Positions 865-26,543 of a stretch of DNA of 64,000 bases are shown here, piece after piece. Source of the stretch: Arthrobacter sp. FW306-2-2C-D06B (lineage in GTDB: Bacteria > Actinomycetota > Actinomycetes > Actinomycetales > Micrococcaceae); assembly GCF_021789175.1 (NCBI RefSeq), contig NZ_CP084560.1:1364001-1428000 (forward strand), in the 5' to 3' direction. The stretch's first letter is position 1. Every line of letters begins with the position of its first letter. The position numbers and the translations under genes were made by a program. A model generated the notes under the pieces. That model saw nothing but the letters and a program-made list of their open reading frames with translations, did not search any database and was not told the DNA's origin.

Positions 865-910
865 CGGGTAGAGCCCACTCGCGCCCGCCCTAGGGGTTCG
901 TTAATACGCT
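865..910 (+). promoter_or_regulatory. Operator palindrome plus -10 box upstream of the nucleotide-sugar genes
   Basis: The 17-mer CGGGTAGAGCCCACTCG (865-881) is an imperfect palindrome. It is followed after 23 bp by TACGCT (905-910, TAnnnT). No good -35 box is present: the operator lies just upstream of where it should be, as expected for a class II activator site. The same layout recurs at 6009, 10684 and 15439. The binding protein is inferred to be one of the LuxR-type regulators. Confidence 0.6.
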
Positions 911-948
911 TTTCCTGATGGCAACCGCCACTCATTTGGGGATAAGTG

Positions 949-965
949 GGTCTCAAGATGAAACG
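949..965 (+). promoter_or_regulatory. Conserved leader element GGTCTCA..ATGAAACG
   Basis: GGTCTCAAGATGAAACG begins 39 bp after the -10 box, exactly as a near copy does at 6092 after the 6048 -10 box. The ATG inside opens a 70-codon frame that stops at 1170, three bases before the downstream start codon. Whether the element acts in RNA, in DNA or as an initiation site is unknown. Confidence 0.4.
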
Positions 966-1067
966 CAGGAAGAATTCTTTGCTTCAGGAAAACCACCCGG
1001 GGATCCGGCGAGAAGTCAACTCCAATGCAAACGGTCTCCCGCATTCGGCGGGTACCCCCACAATCGA

Positions 1068-1135
1068 GCCGGCGGCGGGCGGTCATGTGCCCTCTGAGAC
1101 CAGGGCACGTCCCGTTTCGCCGCCGGCTTTCTTTC
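1068..1135 (+). terminator. Terminator-like hairpin in the leader (possible attenuator)
   Basis: GCCGGCGGCG (1068-1077) pairs with CGCCGCCGGC (1118-1127). An inner stem, GTGCCCT/AGGGCAC (1087-1093/1102-1108), stacks in the loop. TTTCTTTC follows. The structure is downstream of the inferred promoter and 37 bp before the start codon at 1173, so it could terminate or attenuate transcription entering the operon. A smaller hairpin (CCCGC/GCGGG, 1038-1052) precedes it. Confidence 0.5.
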
Positions 1136-1172
1136 ACACTGGAGACAACAGGCACCGGGAGGTCGACTGACC

Positions 1173-2555
1173 ATGGCACCGAACACGAAGGTAAAGACCC
1201 TCAAGGCAGAGCCCAGCGGGAGCTCGCAGTCCTTGCACACGCAGGCACCAGCTTGGCCGGAGGGCGCGGGAACACGGACAACCACACAGGACCAGGCTTT
1301 TACTTTCGACGTGGCGATCGTAGGCATGGGCTATGTCGGCCTGCCCACGGCCCTGGCCATCAACGCCTCGGGTCGGCGTGTTCTCGGCCTTGACGTGTCC
1401 GACGCCCGCCTGGCCGTGATCCGGGAGCAACGGGCAGATCTTCTGGACTCCGACAGGGAACGGCTCAGCAACGCGCTGCTGGACCCGACCTTCATGCTGA
1501 GCAGCGATTTGTCGTTGCTTGCCCACGCGGCGGCAGTGGTTGTGTGCGTTCCCACCCCCGTAGACGAGTACCTGGTTCCGGACCTCGGTATTCTTCGGGC
1601 GGCCTGCGCCTCGGTGGTCGATTTCGCCACCACCGGCCAGTTGCTGATGCTGACCTCTACAACCTACGTCGGATCCACGCGTGACCTTCTGGCTCTGCCC
1701 TTGGCTGCGAGGGGACTCATTCCGGGACGTGACGTGTTCGTGGCCTTCTCGCCCGAGCGCATCAATCCTGGCGTGGATTCGTTCTCCCACGAAGACGTGC
1801 CCCGGGTAGTTGGCGGCGTGACCCCGGCCTGCGGCGAAGTTGCCGAACGGCTCCTGAGCGCCAGCACGAAGCTGGTCCACGTTGTGCCGTCTGCGGACGT
1901 CGCCGAAATGACCAAGCTCGTGGAGAACACCTTCAGGGCCGTCAATATCGCTTTGGCCAACGAATTCGCTGATATCTGCCACGAACTCAACATGGAAGTC
2001 ATGGACGTCATCGATGCGGCCTCCACGAAGCCGTATGGCTTCATGGCGTTCACCCCCGGTCCCGGAGTCGGCGGACACTGCATACCGTGCGACCCGCACT
2101 ACCTGCTGTGGCAATTACGCAAAGCCAGATTGACGGCCCCGGTGATCGAGCAAGCGATGGCTGGGATTGCAGGCAGGCCGCACCAGGTGGTGGAGAAGGC
2201 CCGCCGAATCCTGTCGGACCGCAACCACGGTATTGCCGGTGCCCGCGTCATGGTGCTCGGGGTCGCGTACAAGCCCGACGTCGAAGATCTCCGGGAATCC
2301 CCGGCGTTGGAAATCATTGCCGCCTTGATCGCCGACGGGGCGGAAGTGGCATTCTCCGATCCTTGGTGCCAGACGGCGCCCGACGGTCACGGCGGGACAC
2401 TCCAATCCGAGCAATCGCCTGCTGACTGGGGTGCGGACCTGGTGATCCTGCACACGAGGCACAGCCAGATGGAACTTGGCTGGCTGGCCGGAGCACCAGC
2501 AGTCCTGGACACGACGTACCGCTTGCCCAAGGCCGATAACGTAACCCGGCTCTAG
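1173..2555 (+). CDS. Nucleotide-sugar dehydrogenase (UDP-sugar 6-dehydrogenase family)
   Basis: The 460-residue product oxidises the C6 hydroxyl of a UDP-sugar to the uronate in two NAD+-dependent steps. Visible signatures are the N-terminal Rossmann GMGYVGLPTAL (about residue 50), STTYVGST, and the catalytic-cysteine motif GPGVGGHCIPCDPHYL (about residue 290). The C-terminal UDP-binding domain contains LGVAYKPDVEDLRESP. The cysteine context resembles the WecC/WbpA branch (UDP-ManNAc or UDP-GlcNAc dehydrogenases) more than plain UDP-glucose dehydrogenase, but the substrate cannot be settled. About 45 residues precede the Rossmann fold, a long N-terminus. A purine-rich GGGAGG lies before the ATG. 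The epimerase follows after 31 bp, presumably in one operon supplying precursors for a polysaccharide. Confidence 0.9.
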   Translation: MAPNTKVKTLKAEPSGSSQSLHTQAPAWPEGAGTRTTTQDQAFTFDVAIVGMGYVGLPTALAINASGRRVLGLDVSDARLAVIREQRADLLDSDRERLSNALLDPTFMLSSDLSLLAHAAAVVVCVPTPVDEYLVPDLGILRAACASVVDFATTGQLLMLTSTTYVGSTRDLLALPLAARGLIPGRDVFVAFSPERINPGVDSFSHEDVPRVVGGVTPACGEVAERLLSASTKLVHVVPSADVAEMTKLVENTFRAVNIALANEFADICHELNMEVMDVIDAASTKPYGFMAFTPGPGVGGHCIPCDPHYLLWQLRKARLTAPVIEQAMAGIAGRPHQVVEKARRILSDRNHGIAGARVMVLGVAYKPDVEDLRESPALEIIAALIADGAEVAFSDPWCQTAPDGHGGTLQSEQSPADWGADLVILHTRHSQMELGWLAGAPAVLDTTYRLPKADNVTRL

Positions 2556-2586
2556 ATCCACCAGGTTTTCGACGGAAGCAGGAGTA

Positions 2587-3591
2587 ATGAAAACAGCAAT
2601 AACCGGCGGTGCCGGGTTCATAGGAAGCCACCTTGTTGAGTACTTGTTGGCGGCCGGGGACGAAGTCGCCGTGCTGGACAACTTGTCGACCGGACGCTTG
2701 GAGAATCTCAAAGGCGTCATCGGCCACAGGAACTTCCACTTCATCGAGGGTACGATCCTCGACCGTGACGCTGTGGACAAGGTGGTTGCGGGTGCCGACA
2801 GGGTCTTCCACCTGGCCGCCGCGGTTGGCGTGAATCTTATTGTCGACCACCCGTTGGAGAGCCTCCGCACGAATATCCACGGCACCGAAGTGGTCCTGGA
2901 CTCGGTCCTGGAATCAGGTGCCTCGCTGTTGCTGGCATCCACGAGCGAGATCTACGGCAAAAACACCTCGGACAGCCTCTCGGAGGAAGCGGACCGCATC
3001 CTGGGATCCGCGCTCAAATCCCGGTGGACGTACGCTGCGGCCAAGGGTATTGACGAAGCATTTGCGCACGCATACTGGCGCCAATTCGGGCTGCCGGTTG
3101 CCATCGTGCGGCTCTTCAACACGGTAGGCCCGCGGCAGACGGGCCGGTACGGAATGGTTGTTCCGCGACTGGTGCGGCAGGCGCTCGTCGGGGAGCCCCT
3201 GACCGTATTCGGAGACGGCCACCAGACCAGGTGCTTTTCCTACGTCGGCGACATCGTTCCCGCCATCGTCCGTATTTCCGAGGAACCGCTTGCCTACGGA
3301 AATGCGTACAACCTCGGTGGTAGCTACGAGATCTCCATCCTGACGTTGGCCGAGAGGATTGTCGAACTCCTTGGGAGCGGCAGCACCATCACCTTGGTGC
3401 CTTATGAACAGGCGTACTCGGAAGGCTACGAAGACATGCGCCGGCGGGTCCCGGACAACAGCAAGTCCTTCGGGCTTGTTGGCTTCGAGCCGAAGACCAC
3501 CTTGGATGAAATCATCCTCAACGTCGCGGCCGACTACAAACCGGCAAAAGTCCTGGATCCCGCGGGTTGGAAGATCACCCTCGCATCTTGA
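2587..3591 (+). CDS. NAD-dependent epimerase/dehydratase (extended SDR, nucleotide sugar)
   Basis: This 334-residue cytoplasmic enzyme belongs to the extended short-chain dehydrogenase/reductase family. It has GGAGFIGSHLVEYL at the N-terminus, a Ser in LLASTSEIYG and the YAAAK catalytic pair at about residue 150. LFNTVGPRQTGRYGMVVPR is typical of UDP-glucose 4-epimerase and UDP-glucuronate decarboxylase-like members. A GGAG-type ribosome binding site precedes the ATG at 2587. Its position after the dehydrogenase suggests that it converts the uronate or a related UDP-sugar for surface polysaccharide synthesis. The exact product (epimer or pentose) is not decidable from sequence. Confidence 0.9.
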   Translation: MKTAITGGAGFIGSHLVEYLLAAGDEVAVLDNLSTGRLENLKGVIGHRNFHFIEGTILDRDAVDKVVAGADRVFHLAAAVGVNLIVDHPLESLRTNIHGTEVVLDSVLESGASLLLASTSEIYGKNTSDSLSEEADRILGSALKSRWTYAAAKGIDEAFAHAYWRQFGLPVAIVRLFNTVGPRQTGRYGMVVPRLVRQALVGEPLTVFGDGHQTRCFSYVGDIVPAIVRISEEPLAYGNAYNLGGSYEISILTLAERIVELLGSGSTITLVPYEQAYSEGYEDMRRRVPDNSKSFGLVGFEPKTTLDEIILNVAADYKPAKVLDPAGWKITLAS

Positions 3592-3712
3592 ACCGAGTGA
3601 CAGGAAAGCCTACATCGTTTGGACAGGCGGCTGGGTGCGCGGAGTGTGCGCTGACCGGTCGCCTGACCCTGTCCAAGGAAAGATCCGACGAACCCTTTTC
3701 CAGGAGCATGAT

Positions 3713-4495
3713 GTGAATCGCCCAGCATCCGGACCGAGGCGCCACAACCGGGGCGGAGTGTCTGTCCTTGCGGTCCTGGCCCTGCTGACGGCGGCCTGCA
3801 CCGGTCCAGGTCCGTCCCCGGGTCCGACACAATCAGCCGCGACAGCCGGCCGGTATCCCTGGCACACCGGGATCGTGTCCACGACTTTCTGGGTTGGCGA
3901 GATCTTTGATCCCAAGGCGGCAGATGGGAGCCAAGTGATGTCGACATACGATTCCCAATGGATGCAGAGCTACGGAGGTTGTGACGGCGTCGTGACGAAC
4001 GGCTGCAAGACCGAGGCGAGAACGCAGGCCAAAGGATACGCGCCCACCAGCATGACTCCGAAGGAGAACCCGTTCTACCTCGATCTTCCCTACGATGACG
4101 TCAACGATCCCACCGCGTTCGCCGAACGGGCCAGCGTCATTCCGTGGGCCAACGATCCAGGTTTCGCGGGCAACGCCCAGAACCGTTCCTTCAGCTACAT
4201 GAAGAACCAGTGGGTCAGGATCCGGATGGGCAATCGCGAATGCTACGGACAGATTGAAGATGCCGGTCCGGGGCAATATCACGACAAAAATTATGTTTTC
4301 GGCTCCAATGATGCACGTCCAGTCAACAAGAACTTCAACGGAGCCGGAATGGATGTCTCGCCTGCGCTTAACGGGTGCCTTGGCTTCTCCGAGCTTGACG
4401 GCGAGTCGGACAAAGTCGACTGGCAGTTCGTGCCGCGGGACCAGGTTCCCGCGGGACCGTGGCTGAAAATCGTCACGTCCAGCCAAGTGAAGTAG
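3713..4495 (+). CDS. Secreted lipoprotein, double-psi beta-barrel-like, paralogue of the protein at 9281
   Basis: The GTG at 3713 has AGGAG six bases upstream and begins a 260-residue protein with a lipoprotein signal (LTAAC lipobox, cysteine near residue 27). The mature part contains TTFWVGEIF, FYLDLPYDDVND, CYGQIEDAGP and GMDVSPALNGCLGF. All four recur nearly unchanged in the protein encoded at 9281-10360. The CYGQ..DAGP and DVSP..LNGC pattern suggests a double-psi beta-barrel (RlpA/expansin/GH45-like) fold; this is fold-level inference, not a firm family call. It is probably lipid-anchored outside the membrane and may bind or remodel polysaccharide. The 121 bp before it could hold its own promoter. 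Confidence 0.75.
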   Translation: MNRPASGPRRHNRGGVSVLAVLALLTAACTGPGPSPGPTQSAATAGRYPWHTGIVSTTFWVGEIFDPKAADGSQVMSTYDSQWMQSYGGCDGVVTNGCKTEARTQAKGYAPTSMTPKENPFYLDLPYDDVNDPTAFAERASVIPWANDPGFAGNAQNRSFSYMKNQWVRIRMGNRECYGQIEDAGPGQYHDKNYVFGSNDARPVNKNFNGAGMDVSPALNGCLGFSELDGESDKVDWQFVPRDQVPAGPWLKIVTSSQVK

Positions 4496-4559
4496 CACCG
4501 GCCGCCGGGGCCGTCCAAGCAATCCGGTATGGGCAGTCCCTCGAAAACTGGAGGTAGTC

Positions 4560-4664
4560 ATGCAGTGGCTTAAGAAGCTGTTTCGACACGGCAACGGGAA
4601 GCACCTTGCCCGCCCGGCCGAAGCCAAGGACCAGAACAGGGCGGAACGTCCAAGCCAGGCATGA
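4560..4664 (+). CDS. Possible small protein (34 residues)
   Basis: An ATG at 4560 is preceded by a strong GGAGG (4550-4554) at five-base spacing and opens a 34-codon frame ending at 4664. The product begins MQWLKKLFRHGNGK, a short amphipathic cationic segment, and continues with a polar tail. It lies 64 bp after the lipoprotein gene on the same strand and converges on the GH18 gene, which ends 20 bp away. The ribosome binding site is the main support. No family is recognised. Confidence 0.35.
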   Translation: MQWLKKLFRHGNGKHLARPAEAKDQNRAERPSQA

Positions 4665-4684
4665 CCGCCTGTTAATCGGCGGGG

Positions 4685-5848
4685 TCAAGGCAGTTTGGCG
4701 TGGAATCCCGCACTCAACAAGTCGGAGAAGCGTTGGGTTCCTTGATCGATCCCGCTACACACGTGGCTGGCCGGATCCTCAGGGGTGTCCTGCGGGCACG
4801 ACACGTCCCGGTTCAAGGACCACATGGACACTCGTTGAACTCCCTTGCTGATGGCGAAGGAGTCCAATCCGCGAGCCGCATCGAGGTCGAATATCTCGCC
4901 TGGGAGATCGTTCCGGCCGATCATGGGGGTCAATCCCATCTTTCCCCAGATCTGTTCGCTGTTAAGGGTCGTTCCTGCGCGCTGATAGATGATGCTGAGC
5001 TGATCGTGGGTGGACTGGGCCGCCGAGGTTCCGGCATCGAGCATGCTCTGCGATTGACTCCGGCTTGAACCGTAGTTCATGGTCATGATGTTGACCCCGG
5101 AGAGCTGGACGCCGGCGGCGAGCATCTGGTCAACAGCTGATGTTCCGGCGTCGGTCAGCCCTTGCGGGGTGACCGGAAGGGTCAGCCAGATTGAAAGGGC
5201 GTGCCCTTCCTTGATCCGCTCCTTCTGGAGGGCAGCGATGGCTGCGGCTCGGCGCTGCCAGGCTGCGCTGTCCGCCAGGTTGTCGCCCTCGATGTCAAAG
5301 TCGATAGTTGCGGGGTTGTAGCGCTCCAACACGGCCCGGTAGGCCCTTTCCAGATCTGTTGCATTCTGGCAGGAGTTGGCGAGCTCACTGTTCACCGAGC
5401 CGCCGAAAGACACAGCGAAGGCACCGCCGTTCGACCTCAGCTTGGCGATACGCTCTTCGAGCTTGAGCGAAGTCTTCGCAGCATCGAGACTGTACGTGCT
5501 GCCCCAACTCGGTGTGCAGGCTTGTCCAGCCATTGCCACCACGAACGCCAGCGTGACATTCTTGGTGCCCTCGCCCACGGGTGACTCGAAAGCGTACTGA
5601 GGGACCACGGTGACGTCGACATAGCCGGAAAACCACGGGGGCTCGAGGGAACCGTTTGCGTCCGTAGTAAACCGCCACACGAGGATTCCTCCCATCCCCA
5701 GCACCACAAGGACTGCGGCAATGCAGGCCCGGGCGAAACCTGACAGCCGGCGGAGAGGTCCATCGGCCGGCGGTGGCGGGCGGCGGGTATCGCGCACGCC
5801 GCCCGCCTCAGCCGAAACGGACGTGCCGCCTCCCTGCTTCCTGGACAC
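4685..5848 (-). CDS. Membrane-anchored GH18-like glycosidase
   Basis: The 387-residue protein starts at a GTG at 5848. It has a cytoplasmic basic N-terminus, one transmembrane helix at about residues 37-58 and an extracellular domain. The domain shows GH18 (chitinase-like TIM-barrel) features: VSFGG on strand 3 and IDFDIEG with the proton-donor Glu on strand 4. The full DxxDxDxE motif is incomplete: the first Asp is Ala (ATIDFDIE). Late TIM-barrel motifs are also visible (MTMNYG, QRVSMWSLNRD). It probably cleaves or binds an N-acetylhexosamine-containing polymer. It is divergent from the deacetylase-synthase operon, and GH18-like domains also occur with deacetylases in PgaB of PNAG systems, so a role in processing the locally made polysaccharide is a reasonable inference. 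Confidence 0.8.
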   Translation of the reverse strand: MSRKQGGGTSVSAEAGGVRDTRRPPPPADGPLRRLSGFARACIAAVLVVLGMGGILVWRFTTDANGSLEPPWFSGYVDVTVVPQYAFESPVGEGTKNVTLAFVVAMAGQACTPSWGSTYSLDAAKTSLKLEERIAKLRSNGGAFAVSFGGSVNSELANSCQNATDLERAYRAVLERYNPATIDFDIEGDNLADSAAWQRRAAAIAALQKERIKEGHALSIWLTLPVTPQGLTDAGTSAVDQMLAAGVQLSGVNIMTMNYGSSRSQSQSMLDAGTSAAQSTHDQLSIIYQRAGTTLNSEQIWGKMGLTPMIGRNDLPGEIFDLDAARGLDSFAISKGVQRVSMWSLNRDVSCPQDTPEDPASHVCSGIDQGTQRFSDLLSAGFHAKLP

Positions 5849-6008
5849 GCTCTTCCGCCATCCTTAAACTCCGACTGCCCTGATTGCACCATTTGACCAC
5901 GAACAGATCGGATTCGCCCCTGCCCCGCCCGGGGTTTTGATCCCGGTGTTTTTCGCGCGAAGCGCACGAGTAGTGGCGCTGTCCGGACGTCAAGGTTGAG
6001 TGTAAAGA

Positions 6009-6053
6009 CGGGTAGAGCCTACTCGTGTCCGTCGCCGCCGCAATTCATACGCT
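6009..6053 (+). promoter_or_regulatory. Operator palindrome plus -10 box upstream of the deacetylase-synthase operon
   Basis: CGGGTAGAGCCTACTCG (6009-6025) differs from the 865 site by one base and is the most symmetric 17-mer. TACGCT (6048-6053) follows after 22 bp. It lies in the 518-bp divergent gap between the GH18 gene and the deacetylase. A lone half-site CGAGTAG is at 5967. The same spacing in four promoters argues for a common activator. Confidence 0.65.
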
Positions 6054-6091
6054 GATGGTGTCAGTTGGTGGAGGGCAACGGGGGAAAGACA

Positions 6092-6109: not shown

Positions 6110-6370
6110 GACGCTCTGGTCCGAGCGGCAACAGGACGCGGCGGATTTATCCGAGAAGGCGTTTACCTGGAGTTCGAGCCTGCTCTTGGGGGATTCAGCA
6201 CGGTCCCTCCCATCGATCCTGCGCCGAGTGACGGCGCTGCCGGACGGCAGCGCGCCCTCATAGAGAGGGCCCCTGAGCGGGGGCCGGTGGTGAATAAGCC
6301 TTTGAGACCGAGGCTTCCCCCAGTCGCCACCGGCCCCTTCAGGAACCGCGGCAGCGCGGGTTGGCGATGA
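6101..6370 (+). CDS. Possible upstream ORF (89 residues) overlapping the deacetylase start
   Basis: The frame from the ATG at 6101 runs to a TGA at 6368-6370, which overlaps the ATG at 6367 as ATGA. That geometry would allow translational coupling to the deacetylase. The predicted product has no recognised domain, its second half is rich in Arg and Pro, and third-position GC is lower than in neighbouring genes. No clear ribosome binding site is present. It may equally be untranslated leader. It is listed because its start coincides with the conserved leader element and its stop with the next start. Confidence 0.25.
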   Translation: METDALVRAATGRGGFIREGVYLEFEPALGGFSTVPPIDPAPSDGAAGRQRALIERAPERGPVVNKPLRPRLPPVATGPFRNRGSAGWR

Positions 6371-7776
6371 GTCCCCGGGGGAAGGGCATCGCATCCGGCC
6401 CGCTCCGCACGTCGAGGAAGCGGGTAGGCCTATGGGCTGCCTCTTGGGTGTCGGTGCTGCTCTTGTTGACGGGCGCCACATCGCTGATCAACGGAAGCCA
6501 GGCTCCCTCCGCATCCGGGACCGCCAACCCCACACCTTCTGCCGCCCCGCTCTCATCCGTCAGCCTGACGTTTGATGCGGGCCGGTCAAGCCAGATGGAG
6601 GCGGCCCGCATCTTGAAGGACCACGGCCTCCGGGGCACCTTTTTCATCGACTCCGGCTTTGTTGGCGCGCCTGACTACATGACAACGGACAATCTCCACA
6701 GCTTGGCCGCTGATCAGAATGAAATCGGTGGCCATACGGTCACCCTTGCCGATGTGACCTCGATAGAGCCGGACGAAGCCTCGAGGCAGATCTGCAACGA
6801 TCGGGTGAACCTCACGGATTGGGGCTTCAAGGTCACCTCTTTTGCCTATCCATTTGCGGCTTCAACGCCGAAGTCGGAAGAACAGGTCGCCGGATGCGGC
6901 TACAACAGCGCGCGTGGACTCGGTGAGATAACCACCCCGATCGACTGCACGGGCTGCGCGGCCGCGGAAACTGTCCGCCCAGCCGACCTGTTCCGGACAA
7001 AGGCAACATCGGAGGTCGGCAGCAAGTGGACATTGGCCGACCTTGAGGCGACAGTAACGCAGGCCGAAAAGGCCGGGGGCTGGCTGCAGTTGACCTTCTA
7101 CGACATCGACAGCAGCGGCAGTCTCCGCTCTATCAGCCCCGCGTTGTTCGAACAATTCGCCACTTGGCTGGCGGCCAGGACCCAACAAGGGACCATGGCT
7201 GTGCGGACGGTACATGACGTGATCGGCGGCGTGGCGAAACCCGTGGTGGACGGTCCTGCGGCGGCGCCGGCAGCACCTGGGAAGAACGCACTTCGGAATC
7301 CGGGGCTGGAAACCGCTGGAAAGTATGGCTTGCCGCAATGCTGGCAGGTATCGTCCTATGGCAAGAATGCCGTGGTCCTGAGCACCTTGACTCCGGGACA
7401 CAGTGGTGCGGTGGCCCGTCGCCTGGACGTGAGCGAATATTCGTCCGGTGACGCGAAACTGCTTCCCGTCCTCGATCTGGGAGCGTGCGCTCCGAGCGTG
7501 AGCGCCGGCCACAGCTATTCGCTCAGGGCGTGGTACCAGTCCACTGCAAAGACCCAGTTCGAACTGTATTACCGCAACAAGCTGGGCACGTGGACCTACT
7601 GGACGGCCAGTCCGTGGTTCGCGGCCAACACCAGTTATGAGCAGGCGATCTGGGATACGCCGCCCGTTCCGGCAGGAGCCGAGGCCATCAGCTTTGGAAT
7701 GAACCTCTTCAGCGATGGCCAGCTTGCTACCGATGATTACGAAATGTACGACACAGTGGGAGCTCCGTCGCCGTGA
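6367..7776 (+). CDS. Polysaccharide deacetylase-family protein with altered metal motif and C-terminal carbohydrate-binding-like domain
   Basis: The 469-residue protein has a basic N-terminus, a membrane anchor or signal at about residues 18-40, and a NodB domain (about residues 60-270). A jelly-roll-like domain follows (about residues 300-469: LRNPGLE, TPGHSGAVARRLDVS). NodB enzymes use a D/H/H metal site, from TFDDG and HTxxH. Here the motifs read TFDAG and HTVTL, so the second Asp and second His are replaced, while AYPF of motif 3 remains. It may therefore be inactive or use another geometry, acting as a binding or accessory protein. ATG 6367 is chosen over the TTG at 6361. Its stop overlaps the GT2 start (GTGA), indicating co-translation with the synthase. 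Confidence 0.85.
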   Translation: MSPRGKGIASGPLRTSRKRVGLWAASWVSVLLLLTGATSLINGSQAPSASGTANPTPSAAPLSSVSLTFDAGRSSQMEAARILKDHGLRGTFFIDSGFVGAPDYMTTDNLHSLAADQNEIGGHTVTLADVTSIEPDEASRQICNDRVNLTDWGFKVTSFAYPFAASTPKSEEQVAGCGYNSARGLGEITTPIDCTGCAAAETVRPADLFRTKATSEVGSKWTLADLEATVTQAEKAGGWLQLTFYDIDSSGSLRSISPALFEQFATWLAARTQQGTMAVRTVHDVIGGVAKPVVDGPAAAPAAPGKNALRNPGLETAGKYGLPQCWQVSSYGKNAVVLSTLTPGHSGAVARRLDVSEYSSGDAKLLPVLDLGACAPSVSAGHSYSLRAWYQSTAKTQFELYYRNKLGTWTYWTASPWFAANTSYEQAIWDTPPVPAGAEAISFGMNLFSDGQLATDDYEMYDTVGAPSP

Positions 7777-9152: not shown

Positions 9153-9183
9153 GGCACAGTCGTTGGCCTCGTAAGCGGACATG

Positions 9184-10683: not shown

Positions 10684-10728
10684 CAAGTAGTTACCACTCA
10701 ATCCAGGACTGAAACCCGAAGGTAACGT
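10684..10728 (+). promoter_or_regulatory. Operator palindrome plus -10 box upstream of the LuxR-type regulator
   Basis: CAAGTAGTTACCACTCA (10684-10700) is followed after 22 bp by TAACGT (10723-10728). A half-site CAAGTAG precedes it at 10666. The 440-bp gap 10361-10800 otherwise holds GC-rich potential stems (GGCTCC/GGAGCC near 10640-10652) and no supported gene. The position before 10801 suggests autoregulation, and possibly shared control of the divergent gene. Confidence 0.55.
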
Positions 10729-10800: not shown

Positions 10801-13455
10801 ATGGACGATACCGAAGGGACCCACACCCCGCCCCCGATCATTCGGGCAGCGGAGCTCCAGGAGATTGTCATTGCCTTGTCAGGGCCGGAACCGGGCGGGA
10901 TAGTCATCTCGGGGCCGGGGGGCTCCGGAATGACCACCCTCTTGGACGCAGCGGCTTCAGTGCTGAGCGGTTCATTCAGCGTGATCGCCCACAACGTCTC
11001 GGAGTCATTCGCGGACATTCCGTTTGGAATCGCCATGGCACTTGTTCCGGATCTGCCGGCCAGGGCCAAGGTGCGGCCGGGTTCCATCGTGGCGGCTTGC
11101 CGCAAGGCAGTGCGTGGCGCAGCGACACCCGGATCCGCTGCCTTGCTGGTCCTGGACAACATAGATTTCCTGGATGACATGTCTCTTTGGCTCCTGAGCC
11201 AGTTGCTTGTTGAACCGGACATCCGCCTGATTGCCACCCACCGCTCGGACCGTCCCTTGCGGATGGAACTCATGGAATCCGTGGTTTCGCGGCAGCTGTC
11301 CGTGGTGACGCTGGACGATCTCACGCAGGAGCAGCTCCGCGAATTCCTTGATGATCGCCTCGGCGGACGCGCTGCCCGCAGCCTGGTCCGGGACATCCAT
11401 GCCCTCACCGGAGGAAACCTGCAGACCGCGAAGTTGCTGCTGGACGAAGCCGCTGCGCGTGGCGAGATCGTGGAGCAGGCCGATTCGTGGATGTTGTCCG
11501 GACCGATCCGCCTGGACGGCTCGCAAGCGCTCGAGCTGACCCGCCACCGGCTTGAGGGCTATTCCGTACCACAGCGGCAAGTCGTGGACATCCTGGCAGT
11601 GGGGGAGCCAGTACCGCTGGCCGTCCTTGAACAACTTGGCCAAAAGCGGGCGATCGAAGCGCTGCGGGCCGACGGAACGATCCGAGTCCCGAACGACGGC
11701 CAGGAGACGGCAACCCTCAGCCACGCCATCGAAGCGCGGCTGGCCCGGCAGCAGCTGGGACCTGAACGGATCCTCGAACTTCGACGGAGCATCTACGCGA
11801 CGAGCTCACCCGTTGCTGATGACTCGCTCTGGACGCTGTTCCGTCGAGTGGACCTTGAACAGGCAAGCGGTCTGCCGGTGCCCGACGCTGATCTTTTGAC
11901 CGTGGCCATTACCGCAAACGATATCCACGACAATCGGAGGGCCCGGCGGGCCGCGGAAGCGGTGCGGGCACCGGAGCTCGAACTGGTTGCCGGCGTGGAA
12001 CTGGCACGGGCGCTTTACCAGACAAGGGATTTCCCCGGGGCGGTGACGGTCCTGAAGGGTTTGGTGGCAAACACCCCGGACGTCCTGACCGTGGACTTCG
12101 CCCACGCGGTATGGCTTCTGCTGCATGCCCTTTTGCCGACATCGCCCGGGGCGAGTGTCCTGCAGGCGGTCCTCCAGGATGCCCGACGGCGGCTGGAGGC
12201 TGCCGCCGTCGGCATCCAACCGGGCGAGCCAGCCCATCTTGGCGAGTCTGCAGTCCGGGACGAACTGGACGTTCTCCAGCTGTATCTGGACGCCCAGAAC
12301 GGTAGCTGGCCTTCAGCCAACGGTGAGCTGTTCCAAAGGCTTGCCCATAGCCAATTGGTTGATCCTGGAATGCGTACTGAGGGCCATCCACCACCGCCCA
12401 CCCAGGCTAGCGTGCTGTTGATGGCGCTTGTCTCCCAAGGGCTGGCCGTCAGCGGACGGTTCGCGGACGCCGTCGCTCTTTCCACGCTGGCCCTTGAAGC
12501 CGTGGGGCGGCTGCCACGGTGCCCCGTGGACTTCCACTCCACTGTGCTGACGATCCACGGGTCCAATCTGATCTGGCGCGGGCAATGGGGTGGCCCGGAA
12601 ATGTTCTGCGCCGGCAGTTCAAGCTTCAGCAACCGGATGAGCTATTTCGGCGGGTCTGCGCATCTCTACAGGGCACTCGTACTTGCCAGGCAGGGGAGCC
12701 TGGAACTGGCATGTGAACAGTTCCGGCAAGCCAAGGCCCGGCTGGATGAAGCCGACCCTGAAGGGCTCCTCCCCCCGGCCCTCGGCGGACTTGCCGCGGC
12801 TTCGTGGTTGCTGGGCGACGTCAATCAGGTACGCCGAGCACTGGCGGCCTACGATTCGAGGTCCACCGGAGGGAACTATCTTGCCTCGCAGCTAGCCGAA
12901 AGCTATTCGTCCGCCGCCCGGTCGGTGCTGATTGGCGCTGAGCACTCGCACCGGAAACTGCTCCAACTTGCCGGGTCTGCCGCCAAGAAGGGGCACCGGG
13001 CGCTTGAAATGTTGAATCTCGGCCTGGCGGCCCGTACCGGCAGCCGGGGAGACCGACAGCTGGGGGCCGGAGTGTCCGAGCTGGTGTGGAGCGTCGAGTC
13101 CGGCATGCCGTCGGGACAGGAAGCAGGACAGGAAATGGGAACAGGACAGCTCAGCATAGGTGAACCTCAGCAAGGGTCAGACGAGGAGGAGGCTTTCGTT
13201 TTCGACGAGCCCCGCCCGGCCAGTCCGGAGGCCGGGTCCTCGGTCCTTCCCGGCGTCGTCAAACTTTCCCAGCGCGAACGCGAAGTGACTGCCTTAGTGG
13301 CCTCAGGCCTAAGCAGCGCGGAGGTGGCTGCCCGATTGGGTATCGCCGTGAACACGGTCAACGCCCACCTGCAGCGGGTTTACGGCAAGCTCGGAGTGTC
13401 ACGTAGGCAGAAGCTTTCCGAACTGTGGGATGAGTTGGCGAAGCCGGAGGAGTAG
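10801..13455 (+). CDS. Large LuxR-family ATPase-type transcriptional regulator (LAL-like)
   Basis: The 884-residue product has an N-terminal AAA-type ATPase domain: Walker A-like GPGGSGMTT at about residue 40 and Walker B LLVLDNIDFLDD at about residue 115. A long helical repeat region (about residues 350-750) and a C-terminal LuxR helix-turn-helix (LSQREREVTALVASGLS, AVNTVNAHLQRVYGKLG) follow. The Walker A lysine is Met, so nucleotide binding or hydrolysis may be impaired. Such proteins usually sense a ligand or protein and activate transcription. Its own promoter carries the 17-bp palindrome found at the exopolysaccharide promoters, making it the best candidate for the regulator of that set (inferred). 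A paralogue fragment is at 2-688. Confidence 0.88.
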   Translation: MDDTEGTHTPPPIIRAAELQEIVIALSGPEPGGIVISGPGGSGMTTLLDAAASVLSGSFSVIAHNVSESFADIPFGIAMALVPDLPARAKVRPGSIVAACRKAVRGAATPGSAALLVLDNIDFLDDMSLWLLSQLLVEPDIRLIATHRSDRPLRMELMESVVSRQLSVVTLDDLTQEQLREFLDDRLGGRAARSLVRDIHALTGGNLQTAKLLLDEAAARGEIVEQADSWMLSGPIRLDGSQALELTRHRLEGYSVPQRQVVDILAVGEPVPLAVLEQLGQKRAIEALRADGTIRVPNDGQETATLSHAIEARLARQQLGPERILELRRSIYATSSPVADDSLWTLFRRVDLEQASGLPVPDADLLTVAITANDIHDNRRARRAAEAVRAPELELVAGVELARALYQTRDFPGAVTVLKGLVANTPDVLTVDFAHAVWLLLHALLPTSPGASVLQAVLQDARRRLEAAAVGIQPGEPAHLGESAVRDELDVLQLYLDAQNGSWPSANGELFQRLAHSQLVDPGMRTEGHPPPPTQASVLLMALVSQGLAVSGRFADAVALSTLALEAVGRLPRCPVDFHSTVLTIHGSNLIWRGQWGGPEMFCAGSSSFSNRMSYFGGSAHLYRALVLARQGSLELACEQFRQAKARLDEADPEGLLPPALGGLAAASWLLGDVNQVRRALAAYDSRSTGGNYLASQLAESYSSAARSVLIGAEHSHRKLLQLAGSAAKKGHRALEMLNLGLAARTGSRGDRQLGAGVSELVWSVESGMPSGQEAGQEMGTGQLSIGEPQQGSDEEEAFVFDEPRPASPEAGSSVLPGVVKLSQREREVTALVASGLSSAEVAARLGIAVNTVNAHLQRVYGKLGVSRRQKLSELWDELAKPEE

Positions 13456-15438: not shown

Positions 15439-15483
15439 CGAGTACCGTCCACTCTATTTCGGGCAGTCATCCGGACTTAGCCT
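15439..15483 (+). promoter_or_regulatory. Operator palindrome plus -10 box upstream of a small membrane protein gene
   Basis: CGAGTACCGTCCACTCT (15439-15455) matches the shared 17-bp motif at nearly all conserved positions. TAGCCT (15478-15483) follows after exactly 22 bp. Six bases later is the ATG at 15490, so the transcript would be leaderless. The spacing identity with 865, 6009 and 10684 supports membership of the same regulon. Confidence 0.6.
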
Positions 15484-15489
15484 CGAAGC

Positions 15490-15627
15490 ATGATTACCTT
15501 GGAGAGCCGGCGCGAATGGCGCCAGAGCCAGCACCGGGTCCGCCGGGCGGAATTCGTGGTTGTGGGAATGTTGCTGGCCCTCGTAGCCGCGACAATTCTT
15601 GCCGCCGTCGCGGGATTCGTGCAGTAA
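15490..15627 (+). CDS. Small single-pass membrane protein (45 residues)
   Basis: The ATG at 15490 opens a 45-codon frame. A charged, Arg-rich N-terminal half (MITLESRREWRQ) precedes one strongly hydrophobic helix (about residues 22-44, VVVGMLLALVAATILAAV), giving an N-in topology by the positive-inside rule. There is no Shine-Dalgarno sequence. A TAGCCT -10 box ends six bases before the ATG, so the mRNA probably starts at the initiation codon. The shared regulon palindrome lies upstream and a strong terminator lies 80 bp after its stop, forming a complete small transcription unit. No family recognised; a small regulatory or structural partner of the surface machinery is conceivable. Confidence 0.6.
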   Translation: MITLESRREWRQSQHRVRRAEFVVVGMLLALVAATILAAVAGFVQ

Positions 15628-22113: not shown

Positions 22114-22116
22114 GCG

Positions 22117-22923
22117 ATGATGGGAGGACACCACGCCGCGTCCGGGGCCGCGGCGTGGATAGCTATCGCTTCAACGGGCCCGTACGCCTTGGGCTGGTAC
22201 CCGCTGGACGCCACCGGGATCCTCATCGGAGCGATGACGACGGCGGGGACTGCTTTGGTGTGCGATTGGGACCACCGCGCAAGCACCATCGCCCACTCGC
22301 TGCCGCCGCTGTCCAACGTGATCGCCGTCGGGATCGAGAAAGCCAGCGGGGGACACCGGCAGGGAACCCATTCACTGCTGGGCGCCTCGGCCTTCGTGGT
22401 GCTCGCCGCGATGGCTGCCCAGTTCCAGCTGGATACTCCTGTGGGCCGTTTGTCGGTAGGGGCCGGGCTGTTGTGCATGTTCATGATCAACCTGGCCGCC
22501 AAGGCCCTCAAGCTGTTCCCGAAATCCGGGTGGATCACCAACTGGGTCTTTGCCCTTGCCATGGCCGGCCTGGTCACGTGGTTCGCCCCGCATCAGTGGA
22601 GCTGGCTTCCCTTGGCCATGCTCACCGGCGTCGTAGTCCACATAGTCGGCGACATGATCACCACCGGTGGAGTGCCGCTGCTGTGGCCCATCGTCATCAA
22701 GCCGCCGAAGTTCTGGCGCAAGCTGCCCCTGGTCAGCGGGATCTGGCGGTCCAACGGCGCGTTCTCCATCCCCTTGCTCGGCAGAGCCGGTTCGCGGCGG
22801 GAATGGCTGGTCCTGATTCCCGTGAGCGGCTATGCCATGGTTGGACTCGGCCTGGCTGCGTGGGCATTGCTCCGGAACAAGTGGCCAGCCCTCCTGGCAC
22901 TCATGTTGGGGCTGGGTGGATGA
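22117..22923 (+). CDS. YdjM/DUF457-type membrane metal-dependent hydrolase
   Basis: The 268-residue protein starts three bases after the mfd stop. It has about six membrane helices. Conserved motifs of the LexA-binding/YdjM-like family are visible: HHAASGAA at the N-terminus, CDWDHRAST and RQGTHSLLG (about residues 48-90), GDMITTGG and RSNGAF. Histidines and aspartates in these motifs suggest metal-dependent hydrolysis near the membrane; the substrate is not established. It is probably co-transcribed with mfd. Nine bases separate its stop from that of the convergent secreted-protein operon. Confidence 0.8.
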   Translation: MMGGHHAASGAAAWIAIASTGPYALGWYPLDATGILIGAMTTAGTALVCDWDHRASTIAHSLPPLSNVIAVGIEKASGGHRQGTHSLLGASAFVVLAAMAAQFQLDTPVGRLSVGAGLLCMFMINLAAKALKLFPKSGWITNWVFALAMAGLVTWFAPHQWSWLPLAMLTGVVVHIVGDMITTGGVPLLWPIVIKPPKFWRKLPLVSGIWRSNGAFSIPLLGRAGSRREWLVLIPVSGYAMVGLGLAAWALLRNKWPALLALMLGLGG

Positions 22924-22932
22924 CGATGGATT

Positions 22933-24432
22933 TTAGAACTTCGATTGGCCACCGGCCGTGATGGTTCCGACAGGGTTGCCTGCCTTGTCCGCGGCGCCCG
23001 GTGCTGGAGTGTAAACCGGAGTAGCCGGGGAGAGGCCGGTTCCCGCGGTACCACCCGAACCGTTGGCGGTGAGGGTGATGACCAGGTTTCCGGTGGACTG
23101 GGTCCAGGCCATGGTTGCCGTGAAGGTGCGGGCCGAGCTGCCAGTGTTGTAGGCGGCGCCAAGGGAAACGCTCCCAAATGATGGGGCCGGGCAGCCGGAG
23201 CTGACGAAGGTCAGCACGTTCCCTGTACTGATGCTGGCGGTGCCCGTGGTGGTCTGCGTGGCGGACGTGGAGTCCCAGCCGTTGCACAAGGTGTGGGCGT
23301 CCATGTCGGTCGAAAAGACGATGGTGAGCGTATCTCCGGAATCGGCTGTCTTTCCTGTGCCGCCGTTGTTCATCGTGACGGAGCTGACTGTCGGGGCTGT
23401 CGTGTCGATCTTGACCGTTTGAGTCTGGGATGTGACGTTCCCCGCGACATCCGTGGCGGAGTAGGACACCGTGTGGGTGCCGTCGCCGCCGCTGACGTTC
23501 ACCGCGGCTGTGGCCGCGTTGACGGTGACTGGGGTGAGGCTGTCCACATGGTAGGTGATGGAAGCGATGCCCGAGCCGCCGACGTCCGTCGCGCTGAGGT
23601 TTACTGTCACTGTGCTGGTCCTGTTGTAGCCCAGGGAGTTTGGCGTTGGCGAGATTGAGGCAACTCCCACCACCGGGGCAGTGGTATCGATCTTGACCGG
23701 TTGGGTCTGGAGCGTGCTGGCGTTCCCTGCGACGTCCGTGGCGGAGTACGACACCGAGTGGGTGCCGTCGCCGCTGACGTTGACCGCTGCCGTGGCGGCA
23801 TTGACCGTCACCGTACTGCCGCCGTCGACCGCGTATTTGATGTTCGCAACGCCGGAACCGCCTGTATTGTCCACGGCGGCCAGGTTCACAGTGACCGTAC
23901 CGCTGCGGTTGAAACCCGCGCCGTTCGGTGTCGGGGAAATTGAAGTGACGCTGATGGTGGGCGGCGTCGAATCACTGTTGACGCCACCGCTCCGTGCGCT
24001 CTCCGGGCCTATCCACAAGGAGATGACGGGTGTGACTGTGTAGTACCAGGTCCCAGCCGGCAGGTTTTGTTCAACGCAGCTGAGGCCGGTTACCGTTCCA
24101 GCGCAGCTTCCTCCAGCGGCAACAGTGGTACCGCCGGAGGGAGTCGAGTAGCGGGCCACGGTGTAGCCCGCTACGGCGTGTCCGCCCGGTGTGGCGACGG
24201 CCGCCCAGGTGACCGTGGCATTTGTACCGTTCAGCGCGGCCGTCGGAGCGCCGCCCTGTGGCATGCTGTCTGCTTTGGCCGCGCCGAAATTGCTGCTGCT
24301 CAGCGATTGCCAGAATGCGTTGGCAGCCGGGCCGCCCCACGAGATGAAGAGCACAGCAAGGAGAGTCCAAGCCACCCGACGGCGGACCGCCGGCTTTTGT
24401 CCGCGGCCTGCAGAGTGCTTGGGCTTGTTCAT
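22933..24432 (-). CDS. Secreted multidomain Ig-like repeat protein
   Basis: The ATG at 24432 overlaps the previous stop (ATGA) and yields 499 residues. After a basic stretch comes a signal peptide ending near AANAFWQS, reminiscent of SipW-type exit motifs. A fibronectin-III-like domain (about 60-165) follows, then two near-identical repeats of about 90 residues starting at SISPTPN (about 185 and 270). Both repeats end YSATDVAGN. A C-terminal domain (about 365-499) contains IVFSTDMD. The repeats resemble OmpL47/Ig-like stalk modules. No enzymatic motif is seen. It is probably an extracellular scaffold or adhesin, last gene of the operon starting at 26360. Confidence 0.75.
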   Translation of the reverse strand: MNKPKHSAGRGQKPAVRRRVAWTLLAVLFISWGGPAANAFWQSLSSSNFGAAKADSMPQGGAPTAALNGTNATVTWAAVATPGGHAVAGYTVARYSTPSGGTTVAAGGSCAGTVTGLSCVEQNLPAGTWYYTVTPVISLWIGPESARSGGVNSDSTPPTISVTSISPTPNGAGFNRSGTVTVNLAAVDNTGGSGVANIKYAVDGGSTVTVNAATAAVNVSGDGTHSVSYSATDVAGNASTLQTQPVKIDTTAPVVGVASISPTPNSLGYNRTSTVTVNLSATDVGGSGIASITYHVDSLTPVTVNAATAAVNVSGGDGTHTVSYSATDVAGNVTSQTQTVKIDTTAPTVSSVTMNNGGTGKTADSGDTLTIVFSTDMDAHTLCNGWDSTSATQTTTGTASISTGNVLTFVSSGCPAPSFGSVSLGAAYNTGSSARTFTATMAWTQSTGNLVITLTANGSGGTAGTGLSPATPVYTPAPGAADKAGNPVGTITAGGQSKF

Positions 24433-24953
24433 TTGCGGACCGCCATCGTCACTGGAAGGTGGAATACGGCGCCTTGGCAGCTGGATTGTGAGGCCGTCGA
24501 CATCGACGCCGCTGCGGGCAGGGTGATCAGAACGGAGGAGTTTGCCGGGATGGACACCGATGGAGTGAGTGGCGCGGCCGGGGCATTGAATGTCACGCCC
24601 GTGGTGGTGCACAGCGGGTGGGCTGAATCCGCGGTAGCGGCTCCGTTGGCGATGAAGCTGTACACCTGCACAGTGAACGCATTTGGATTGTTCGCCCGCA
24701 CGATGACCTCCGCGCTACCTCCAGGGACGAGCGTGGTTGCGGGACTGTCACCGGCCACCAAAGCGTCCACGGTGACGGTTTGCATGTCGCCGGCGGCAGC
24801 GGAGCCGCTGCCGATCCCGATGGTGGACCAATAGGCGTAGGCCGATCCGACTCCCAGCACGAGGCTCAGCAGGGCAGCCGTCACAGCCGCTTTGGCCGCG
24901 GCCAAGGAGCCGGTCTTCATCCACCTTTTCGCTTTCATGTCAGTTGTCCGCAT
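24429..24953 (-). CDS. SipW-type signal-peptide protein (TasA/camelysin-like), second copy
   Basis: The 174-residue protein starts at an ATG one base after the preceding stop. A basic N-terminus leads to a hydrophobic segment ending AYAYWST, the hallmark of SipW-dependent signal peptides found on TasA/CalY-type fibre proteins. The rest is beta-rich with two cysteines (about residues 123 and 160). Proteins of this class can assemble into matrix fibres in Bacillus; here that is inference from the signal type. No SipW-like peptidase gene is in the window. Confidence 0.7.
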   Translation of the reverse strand: MRTTDMKAKRWMKTGSLAAAKAAVTAALLSLVLGVGSAYAYWSTIGIGSGSAAAGDMQTVTVDALVAGDSPATTLVPGGSAEVIVRANNPNAFTVQVYSFIANGAATADSAHPLCTTTGVTFNAPAAPLTPSVSIPANSSVLITLPAAASMSTASQSSCQGAVFHLPVTMAVRK

Positions 24954-24954
24954 T

Positions 24955-25794
24955 TCAATTGCCCTGTCCCGTTCCGGAGTAGGAAAGCTGGAGGGTTGCG
25001 CCTTTGCAACCGTCTTGGTTCAGCGAAGTGTCCAGCATTCTTATCTGCGGCCACCGAGCTGCCGGAATTCCGCTCCCGGAAAGCGAGGAATTGCCGGGCG
25101 GTGCAGCTATCGGATAACTGCCGCTGAATTGGATGACGACGTAGTCCGAAGGATTGCACGGCCGGTTGTTGGCGACGGCCTGGGCGGTGCGCGTGACTCC
25201 GGCGATGGAAACGGTCAGGCCGGTGACGTTGAGGCTGGAATTGCCCGGGTTCGTCAATTGAAGATTAATCGGTACTGCATTGCCCGGTGCCAGAAGCCCT
25301 GTGGGGTCGCCTGAGATGGTGAACGGCTGGTGCTGTCCGGCGGTCACCGTCAAAGATACGACGACGACGGCGGATTGTAGCGTCCCGCTGGTGCCCTTGA
25401 CGCTCAGGGAGTAGGTACCAAGAGGTGTGGCCGACGTAGTGGAAACGTCGAGGTTTGATGACCCGGATCCTGGACCGGCGGCGACGACGGCGGGCGAAAA
25501 CGATGCGGTGGCACCCGCCGGCAGCCCCGAGATTGTCAGTGCGACGTTGCCGGCAAACCCGCCCGAGGGCTGGACGACGACGTTGTAGCTCGCCGAGGTT
25601 CCCTGCGTAACGGATCTGCTGGTGGGGGCAAGCTGCAGCGTGATCGCTTTTGGCGTGGTTTGGTTGCCATTGCTATTTGCGGCGAGCACTACACCTGAAG
25701 TCAGGGTTACCAAAAGGAGGCCTGCCAGGAGCACTTTGGCTCCCGCACGGATGATGCGAAGCGGTGAGTGGAATGACTCCTGAATGCTCGGCAC
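24955..25794 (-). CDS. Secreted Ig-like protein of the SipW-cargo operon
   Basis: A GTG at 25794 with GAGGAGG five bases upstream gives 279 residues. A signal peptide (VLLAGLLLVTLTSGVVLA) precedes an Ig-like beta domain (about residues 50-155) and a second domain with two Cys. The C-terminus NQDGCKGATLQLSYSG closely resembles the end of the first operon protein (NQDACKNVTVNFAY). This suggests a shared module or strand-complementation interaction. It is probably a surface-matrix component. A 13-bp hairpin separates it from the first gene. Confidence 0.7.
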   Translation of the reverse strand: MPSIQESFHSPLRIIRAGAKVLLAGLLLVTLTSGVVLAANSNGNQTTPKAITLQLAPTSRSVTQGTSASYNVVVQPSGGFAGNVALTISGLPAGATASFSPAVVAAGPGSGSSNLDVSTTSATPLGTYSLSVKGTSGTLQSAVVVVSLTVTAGQHQPFTISGDPTGLLAPGNAVPINLQLTNPGNSSLNVTGLTVSIAGVTRTAQAVANNRPCNPSDYVVIQFSGSYPIAAPPGNSSLSGSGIPAARWPQIRMLDTSLNQDGCKGATLQLSYSGTGQGN

Positions 25795-25843
25795 CTGGGC
25801 CTCCTCTAGGGTTCTGCGTGGTTTCTACTGATCGGACAGCACA

Positions 25844-25874
25844 AGCTGGTGGGCCCGCGATGGGCCCACCAGCT
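25844..25874 (-). terminator. Intercistronic hairpin after the first SipW-cargo gene
   Basis: AGCTGGTGGGCCC (25844-25856) pairs perfectly with GGGCCCACCAGCT (25862-25874) around a five-base loop. It is only seven bases after the stop of the gene at 25881. No T-run follows on the minus strand, so it is more likely an mRNA-stabilising or partial-termination element, giving higher output of the first protein. Confidence 0.6.
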
Positions 25875-25880
25875 GGATGG

Positions 25881-26360
25881 CTAGTGGCTGGCGTAGGCGA
25901 AGTTGACGGTGACGTTTTTGCAGGCGTCCTGGTTGGTGGCCTTGTCGTTGAATGCGATCGTCGCACCGTGCCAGCTGTCCACGTTCGTGCCGCTGGCTAC
26001 TTCGTGGCCGACGGTCATTGTCGCGTTCGCGAGGGTGAAGTCGGTCGAGTCGCAGCCGACGGCAGTCACTCCGCCTTTGGTCACGCTCGCGATGCTCGCC
26101 GTCACATCTGCAACGAAAACCGGGCTCGTATTGAGGTTGGTGAAATTGCCGCTAAGGGTCTGAGCGGCGCCGCCCGGCTCGAGACCGGTGACAACGCCAG
26201 TCTGGTTTACGGTGATGGTGGTGTTTGTTCCTGATGCTCCGGAACCGACACCGCTACCGGTGTTGGTCCAGTAGGCGTAGGCGACGCCGCCGCTTGCTGC
26301 CACGAGGGCAACTGTTGCTGTTGCCGCGTAGATCTTTCCCTTTTTGCTCAATTTACGCAT
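25881..26360 (-). CDS. SipW-type signal-peptide protein (TasA/camelysin-like), first gene of operon
   Basis: The 159-residue protein starts at an ATG preceded by AAGGAG. The N-terminus (MRKLSKKGKIYA) and hydrophobic stretch end in VAYAYWTNTG, a clear SipW-type signal. The mature domain is small, beta-rich, with Cys near 102 and 147 and a C-terminal NQDACKNVTVNFAY. It is promoter-proximal and followed by a stabilising hairpin, as expected for an abundant structural subunit. Two regulon-type palindromes lie 135-185 bp upstream. A matrix-fibre function is inferred by analogy with TasA/CalY, not demonstrated. Confidence 0.75.
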   Translation of the reverse strand: MRKLSKKGKIYAATATVALVAASGGVAYAYWTNTGSGVGSGASGTNTTITVNQTGVVTGLEPGGAAQTLSGNFTNLNTSPVFVADVTASIASVTKGGVTAVGCDSTDFTLANATMTVGHEVASGTNVDSWHGATIAFNDKATNQDACKNVTVNFAYASH

Positions 26361-26423
26361 GATGAGACTCCTTGTTAATTGTTATTCCCCGGAACAGGCG
26401 AACAGCGGCAAGGAATTCGCAAA

Positions 26424-26543
26424 TTACCACTCCTGCTTTGACTGCCCATTCAATCGATGACCAAATGCTTCCATGGGCGGTCTTTAACTAACAACGAGTG
26501 GTGTTACCTGTCTTTCGTAGTCAAAAGCGAGTGGTACTACTTG
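26424..26543 (-). promoter_or_regulatory. Operator sites upstream of the SipW-cargo operon
   Basis: Two 16-bp palindromes related to the exopolysaccharide operators occur: CGAGTGGTACTACTTG (26528-26543) and CGAGTGGTGTTACCTG (26495-26510), with starts 33 bp (about three helical turns) apart. A third half-site, TTACCACTC (26424-26432), overlaps a candidate minus-strand -10, TAATTT (26426-26421). The central spacer is one base shorter than at 865 and 6009. The remaining 26361-26423 is leader with AAGGAG before the start. Confidence 0.5.

What the first reader, a model, noticed from the sequence alone, without database searches (positions are those of the whole stretch)
865..26543. A LuxR-linked operator with fixed promoter spacing ties polysaccharide, regulator, small membrane protein and fibre-type protein genes into one regulon
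Four 17-bp imperfect palindromes (865, 6009, 10684, 15439; about CRRGTASNNNCYACTCN) each precede a TAnnnT -10 box by 22 or 23 bp, with no -35 box. They sit before a nucleotide-sugar operon, a deacetylase-synthase operon, a LuxR-type regulator and a 45-residue membrane protein. Two 16-bp relatives (26495, 26528) lie upstream of a SipW-cargo operon. Spacing and placement are seen in the sequence. That a LuxR-type protein (10801 or the gene ending at 688) is the activator, and that the products form an extracellular matrix, is inference. I know of no description of such a regulon in this group.
Basis: partly seen in the sequence, partly recalled or inferred. Interest (0 to 1): 0.82.

Follow-up and report, generated by a model that had tools for sequence, protein, structure and literature searches.

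The report
Conserved operator for surface-polysaccharide genes
Soil bacteria of the Arthrobacter group share a DNA switch, set at a fixed distance from the promoter, that ties cell-surface sugar and envelope genes into one set; it is probably thrown by paired giant LuxR-type proteins.

Summary
The four 17-bp sites are exact. In the 4.56-Mb genome the core occurs exactly 8 times; 7 of 8, and 3 of the 4 outside the window, have TAnnnT 22/23 bp downstream. Further sites precede three more NodB deacetylases, a LysM protein and other envelope-like proteins. The deacetylase-operon site recurs with the spacing in 23 of 23 named Arthrobacter-group loci; 20 of 23 exact sites read in eight other genomes obey it. 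This is a regulon with class-II activator geometry and no -35 box.

The activator is inferred. The LuxR-type gene at 10801 looks like a target; relatives at E<=1e-60 occur in 4 of 295 genomes. The gene ending at 688 is the last of four tandem LAL regulators. Such arrays co-occur with the site, lie beside it in several genera, and are built of A-B pairs from two clades. I propose an A-B LAL pair as activator, possibly a heteromer. The two sites before the fibre-type operon have a 2-bp centre and no -10 box at the fixed distance; both are conserved in one relative, but membership is unproven.

The parts
865..881 (+). operator 1, upstream of UDP-glucose dehydrogenase/epimerase genes
   Evidence: exact motif, -10 at 23 bp; seen with 0-2 mismatches and the spacing in 17 of 23 named loci (in L052 and L061 the locus begins inside the gene)
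905..910 (+). -10 box TACGCT of operator 1
6009..6025 (+). operator 2, upstream of deacetylase-glycosyltransferase operon
   Evidence: in 23 of 23 named loci (gene order read in 8 of 23, the rest by position)
6048..6053 (+). -10 box TACGCT of operator 2
10684..10700 (+). operator 3, upstream of LAL5
   Evidence: in 20 of 20 named loci that hold LAL5
10723..10728 (+). -10 box TAACGT of operator 3
15439..15455 (+). operator 4, upstream of 45-residue membrane protein
   Evidence: at the corresponding place in 17 of 23 named loci; of those only L043, L047, L052 and L058 were annotated, and the small gene was called in the first three
15478..15483 (+). -10 box TAGCCT of operator 4; 6 bp before the ATG, so perhaps a leaderless transcript
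   Evidence: sequence; leaderless reading is inference
1..688 (+). 3' end of LAL4 (B clade), last of four tandem LAL regulators that start outside the window
   Evidence: GerE domain; array read in L031
1173..2555 (+). UDP-glucose/GDP-mannose dehydrogenase
   Evidence: Pfam
2587..3591 (+). NAD-dependent epimerase
   Evidence: Pfam
6361..7776 (+). NodB-type polysaccharide deacetylase (start codon uncertain)
   Evidence: Pfam PF01522
7773..9152 (+). family 2 glycosyltransferase
   Evidence: Pfam
10801..13455 (+). LAL5, AAA_16 + GerE regulator, probably a target
   Evidence: Pfam; long branch on the A side of the tree
15490..15627 (+). 45-residue protein, hydrophobic segment by eye
   Evidence: translation
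26529..26542 (-). related element AAGTAGTACCACTC, 2-bp centre; membership unproven
   Evidence: conserved in L268 of G311
26496..26509 (-). related element AGGTAACACCACTC, 2-bp centre; membership unproven
   Evidence: related copy in L268 of G311

Best explanation
The palindrome (AAAnnC RRGTAS N3 CYACTC nnKYC) is the operator of a class-II activator: it fills the -35 region (centre near -43/-44 if the -10 box starts at -12) and recruits RNA polymerase to a -10 box (TAnnnT) that lacks a -35 box. The activator is most likely one or more of the tandem LAL-type regulators LAL1-LAL4 that end at window 688, acting as an A-clade/B-clade pair. The regulon covers surface-polysaccharide synthesis and modification, other envelope-like proteins, LAL5 and, in several genomes, promoters inside or just behind the LAL arrays. 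Shown: sites, spacing, conservation, placement, co-occurrence, A-B pairing. Inferred: binding, activation, heteromer, signal (ATP plus an unknown ligand, by analogy with MalT, recalled) and matrix output.
For: Spacing in 7 of 8 exact own-genome cores and 20 of 23 exact sites read in 8 other genomes. Conservation in 23 named loci with diverging spacers. Target classes. An array-type LAL at E<=1e-40 in 38 of 46 genomes with the exact motif, against 103 of 249 without. 16 of 90 sites, in 13 genomes of five genera, within 5 kb of a listed LAL, 0.34 expected. Of 17 arrays chosen by LAL position, 8 hold 11 near-match sites with the spacing, about 0.39 expected; one of them (L320) is the same locus as L063, seen before, so 7 of 16 with 9 sites are new. 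A then B in 22 of 22 loci where both are in view. Distal and proximal half-sites differ.
Against: No binding or expression data. Outside the own genus the exact pattern is no more frequent than its reversed control (41 against 44, my count) and co-occurrence is weaker (P 0.002, not corrected for kinship; two of the 38 co-occurrences, G025 and G029, rest on coding-like sites). G106 has no LAL hit at 1e-40, yet one of its two 1-mismatch sites has the spacing; G071 has two exact sites with the spacing and no LAL hit. 103 genomes have a LAL but no exact motif, and 9 of 17 arrays show no site. Linkage could also mean that LALs are targets, as LAL5 seems to be.
Confidence: 0.72

Rival explanations
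1. LAL5 (10801) is the activator and autoregulates.
For: Its promoter has the site in 20 of 20 named loci with the gene, and its helix-turn-helix is nearly unchanged although the whole protein falls to about 45% identity.
Against: Relatives at E<=1e-60 in only 4 of 295 family genomes, while sites with the spacing occur in genomes without it, e.g. G236, G145, G099, G239; L065 keeps the dehydrogenase and deacetylase sites without LAL5 between them.
Confidence: 0.08
2. An unlinked regulator (another GerE-type protein or a response regulator) binds the site; the LAL genes are merely targets.
For: LAL5 seems to be a target; sites sit inside arrays as promoters of LAL genes would; exceptions G106 and G071.
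Against: Adjacency of 16 sites against 0.34 expected and co-occurrence. I made no systematic search for another candidate.
Confidence: 0.17
3. The site is a repressor operator.
For: Palindromes near promoters are often repressor sites (general knowledge).
Against: No -35 box better than chance and a fixed 22/23 bp to the -10 box, as expected for class-II activation (general knowledge).
Confidence: 0.05

Closest known systems
LuxR/lux box class-II activation
   Same: Palindrome in place of the -35 box, GerE-type DNA-binding domain (lux-box position near -42.5 is recalled)
   Different: Half-site GAGTAG with a 3-bp centre; regulators of about 840-890 residues with an ATPase found in LAL4 and LAL5; no autoinducer domain among the Pfam matches; LuxI not searched
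PimM PAS-LuxR operator CTVGGGAWWTCCCBAG (PMC6448028, passages seen)
   Same: Actinobacterial LuxR-class dyad operator
   Different: Different sequence; PAS-LuxR protein; antibiotic genes
MalT and Streptomyces LAL regulators such as SCO6993 and NysRI (PMC9628970, passages seen)
   Same: Large regulators with GerE domain; several LALs reported in antibiotic clusters
   Different: MalT box is the short motif GGA[TG]GA; for SCO6993 the authors could not predict a consensus; here one sharp consensus and A-B pairs tied to surface genes
Arthrobacter sp. UMCV2 luxR-related genes (PMC9659744, passages seen)
   Same: LuxR-class genes in Arthrobacter
   Different: Inducibility by a biocompound; the passages seen describe no operator or regulon for them

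Membership tests
LAL regulators (LuxR class with N-terminal ATPase) | C-terminal GerE domain | tested here: met
   PF00196 in LAL5 and the LAL4 C-terminus, in LAL1-LAL3 and in a full-length LAL4 orthologue from L047
LAL regulators (LuxR class with N-terminal ATPase) | N-terminal AAA ATPase domain | tested here: inconclusive
   PF13191 above cut-off in LAL5 and the LAL4 orthologue; no ATPase match at 1e-3 in LAL1-LAL3 as called, whose starts are uncertain
LAL regulators (LuxR class with N-terminal ATPase) | Large size, about 850-950 residues | tested here: met
   LAL1-LAL5: 877, 867, 839, 893, 884 residues; LAL3, with an uncertain start, is just below
LAL regulators (LuxR class with N-terminal ATPase) | ATP- and ligand-dependent DNA binding | not testable with these tools
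   needs protein
class-II activator-dependent promoters | Operator over the -35 region at fixed distance from the -10 box | tested here: met
   22 or 23 bp in 7 of 8 and 20 of 23 exact sites
class-II activator-dependent promoters | No consensus -35 box | tested here: met
class-II activator-dependent promoters | Start site at the predicted place; activity lost without activator | not testable with these tools
   needs RNA data
this regulon: fibre-type operon at 26.4 kb | 3-bp centre and TAnnnT at 22/23 bp | tested here: not met

The most novel reading that the evidence does not exclude
The activator is an obligate heteromer of two ancient LAL subfamilies (A and B), encoded as tandem, often overlapping pairs that have multiplied into arrays in the Arthrobacter family; the differing distal and proximal half-sites fix which subunit faces RNA polymerase, so array expansion gives several partner combinations that read one operator code for the cell surface.
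Probability: 0.35. Interest if true: 0.8.

Novelty: new member of a known kind. Interest (0 to 1): 0.62.

Why it matters
It gives a sharp operator for a large class of giant LuxR-type regulators in the Arthrobacter family, and a gene list (deacetylases, UDP-sugar enzymes, LysM and other envelope-like proteins) that makes control of the cell surface in common soil bacteria directly testable. The A-B pairing poses a simple question about heteromeric LAL activators.

Tried and rejected
The 1-mismatch core is rarer than its reversed control (103 against 365), so mismatch counts prove nothing; the spacing separates real sites. Hits with the spacing that I dropped from the regulon: 2203730+ lies antisense inside a gene, and 3091603- points away from the permease operon beside it. 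3472502, a near-perfect palindrome without the spacing, overlaps the end of a gene that reads as elongation factor Tu (name recalled). Seven of the eight motif genomes without a LAL hit share a near-identical AACGC[AG]GGTACCGGCCACTC, perhaps a coding coincidence (not checked by translation). Alternative sigma factor rejected: the motif is palindromic and ends over 20 bp upstream of the -10 box. Literature: eight searches listed nothing that names this operator in title or abstract start; most listed papers, including the survey of actinobacterial LuxR regulators PMC3466318, were not opened, and subscription papers are mostly not held.

Full report
WHAT WAS CHECKED. TAnnnT follows after 23, 22, 22 and 22 bp. 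The window lies at 1364001-1428000 of a single 4,564,406-base contig; the closest named loci are Arthrobacter.

GENOME-WIDE TEST. I read 98 of the 103 places with at most 1 mismatch and 80 of 80 places of the extended pattern with at most 2 mismatches. TAnnnT at 22/23 bp follows 7 of 8 exact cores (0.04 expected from other gaps), 10 of 16 extended sites with at most 1 mismatch (0.11) and 6 of 64 with 2 mismatches (0.30) (the groups overlap). Among the 90 cores with 1 mismatch it is 5 (0.41). Of the four exact sites outside the window 3 comply (P about 3e-6); the fourth (2341303) has TTGACT at the same place. Against this, the raw 1-mismatch count is below the reversed control (103 against 365): the spacing, not the count, carries the signal.

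WHAT THE OTHER SITES PRECEDE. Polysaccharide deacetylases of 630 aa (site 1177040), 991 aa with fibronectin-III repeats (1506154-) and 644 aa (1515706-); a LysM protein (3535449); a 306-aa protein followed by a gene with a far sub-cut-off class F sortase match (2934805-); a probable lipoprotein (4159404); probably secreted proteins (287099, 1093491); a small membrane protein before a permease-like operon (3091016) and a relative of it (2341303, without TAnnnT); a 101-aa protein (2207523). A ferritin-like gene (PF00210; Dps by recall) has a 2-mismatch site with a 24-bp gap (232946). 'Secreted', 'lipoprotein', 'membrane' and 'permease' are my reading of sequences, not a tool's. Two hits with the spacing were dropped as misplaced (2203730+, 3091603-).

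CONSERVATION. A scan with the glycosyltransferase kept 80 of 223 relatives. In the first 23 loci (L043-L065, Arthrobacter and Pseudarthrobacter) a site with 0-2 mismatches and the spacing lies at the deacetylase-operon place in 23 of 23, at the dehydrogenase in 17, at LAL5 in 20 of the 20 that hold LAL5, and at the 45-residue-protein place in 17 (I annotated 8 of the 23, and LAL genes in all). The logo of 82 sites is AAAnnC RRGTAS N3 CYACTC nnKYC, gap 22 in 51 and 23 in 31 (sites chosen for having the spacing). Most spacer columns are variable.

OTHER GENOMES. The exact extended pattern occurs in 46 of 295 family genomes. In the own genus it is enriched (49 sites against 2 for the reversed pattern in 24 genomes, my count); elsewhere it is not (41 against 44), so there only sites with the spacing should be trusted. 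I read 23 of the 84 sites outside the own genome in 8 genomes of my choice; 20 of 23 have TAnnnT at 22/23. G239 is the genome of L065, so two of the 20 were seen before. Three more exact sites came with LAL arrays: 1 of 3 complies; 58 remain unread. In six own-genus genomes without an exact site, 8 of 22 places with 1 mismatch have the spacing. Sites upstream of SufS (L251, L313) have TTTACT at the 22-bp place, and L314 TTAACT.

WHICH REGULATOR. Upstream of operator 1 lies an array of four LAL genes, the last ending at window 688. All five LALs have a GerE domain; an ATPase domain was found in LAL5 and an LAL4 orthologue but not in LAL1-LAL3 as called. LAL5 has relatives at E<=1e-60 in 4 of 295 genomes, the own genome included. 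A query with an LAL4 orthologue (L047) at 1e-40, which also reaches other array members, matches 141 of 295: 38 of 46 with the exact motif and 103 of 249 without (P 1.5e-7; outside the own genus 20 of 28 against 98 of 243, P 0.002; neither corrected for kinship). 16 of 90 sites, in 13 of 46 genomes, lie within 5 kb of one of the 47 LAL places that I took from the capped list, 0.34 expected; syntenic relatives are not independent. As a forward test 17 arrays were taken by LAL position: 8 hold 11 sites with at most 3 mismatches plus the spacing, about 0.39 expected from 1.10 Mb of loci L066-L122; 9 of 17 hold none. L320 proved to be the locus of L063, leaving 7 of 16 and 9 sites as new. Against the link: G106 has no LAL hit but one 1-mismatch site with the spacing, and G071 two exact sites with the spacing without a LAL hit.

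PAIRED ARRAYS. A tree of 76 LAL proteins, rooted at its midpoint, splits 38 to 38 (support 0.98 and 0.93): one side holds LAL1 and LAL3 (their own clade 0.999) and, on a long branch of uncertain place, LAL5; the other holds LAL2 and LAL4. In 22 of 24 loci where both are in view, A is followed by B; L251 and L265 show only B because the A gene is cut. Departures from strict alternation: ABB (L316, L324, L330; the third gene ends without the helix-turn-helix, and in L316 Pfam finds only the ATPase), ABAAB (L322, L332) and ABA at the end of the stretch (L327, L329). Several pairs overlap by 4 bases (LAL3/LAL4; L315, L322, L332). In 117 sites chosen for the spacing, the distal half is mostly RRGTAS and the proximal half GAGTRG, partly because the search pattern asks for it. 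This suggests, but does not show, a heteromer. In other genomes arrays stand next to a bacterial sugar transferase (L254 of another genus, L318 of the own genus).

THE FIBRE-TYPE OPERON. The two elements have a 2-bp centre and no fixed -10 box. Of 39 genomes searched with the first cargo protein 14 match, the own included; among the 24 loci fetched, the elements occur in the own genome and upstream of the 72%-identical gene of G311 (L268) only. They are probably functional, perhaps for a related regulator, but fail the membership test used here.

VERDICT. A genuine regulon of a LuxR-class, class-II type, not seen described in the eight searches made. Activator identity, activation and matrix function remain inference.

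Noticed in passing
L316 6915-9398, L324 6615-9104, L330 6372-8930: A third LAL-like gene after the A-B pair whose C-terminus shows no helix-turn-helix (Pfam run on L316 only); could be an adaptor or inhibitor of the pair.
   Followed up: partly
window 15478-15492: The -10 box of operator 4 lies 6 bp before the ATG of the 45-residue protein, suggesting a leaderless transcript.
   Followed up: no
window 26496-26542 and L268 1322-1367: Two tandem 2-bp-centre relatives of the operator, 32-33 bp apart, conserved in one relative; may belong to a different LAL.
   Followed up: partly
L275 1021-1035: A perfect GAGTAGCAACTACTC palindrome near a relative of the fibre-type cargo gene, with TAnnnT at 22 bp on the - strand.
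   Followed up: no
L062 13028-15377: LAL5 is called in several pieces in Arthrobacter sp. Hiyo8, possibly sequencing error.
   Followed up: no
L031 13087 and 13152 (genome 1359087, 1359152): Imperfect sites between LAL2 and LAL3, with TTAATT instead of TAnnnT at 22 bp behind the second; L258 has an exact site with the spacing at the same place.
   Followed up: partly
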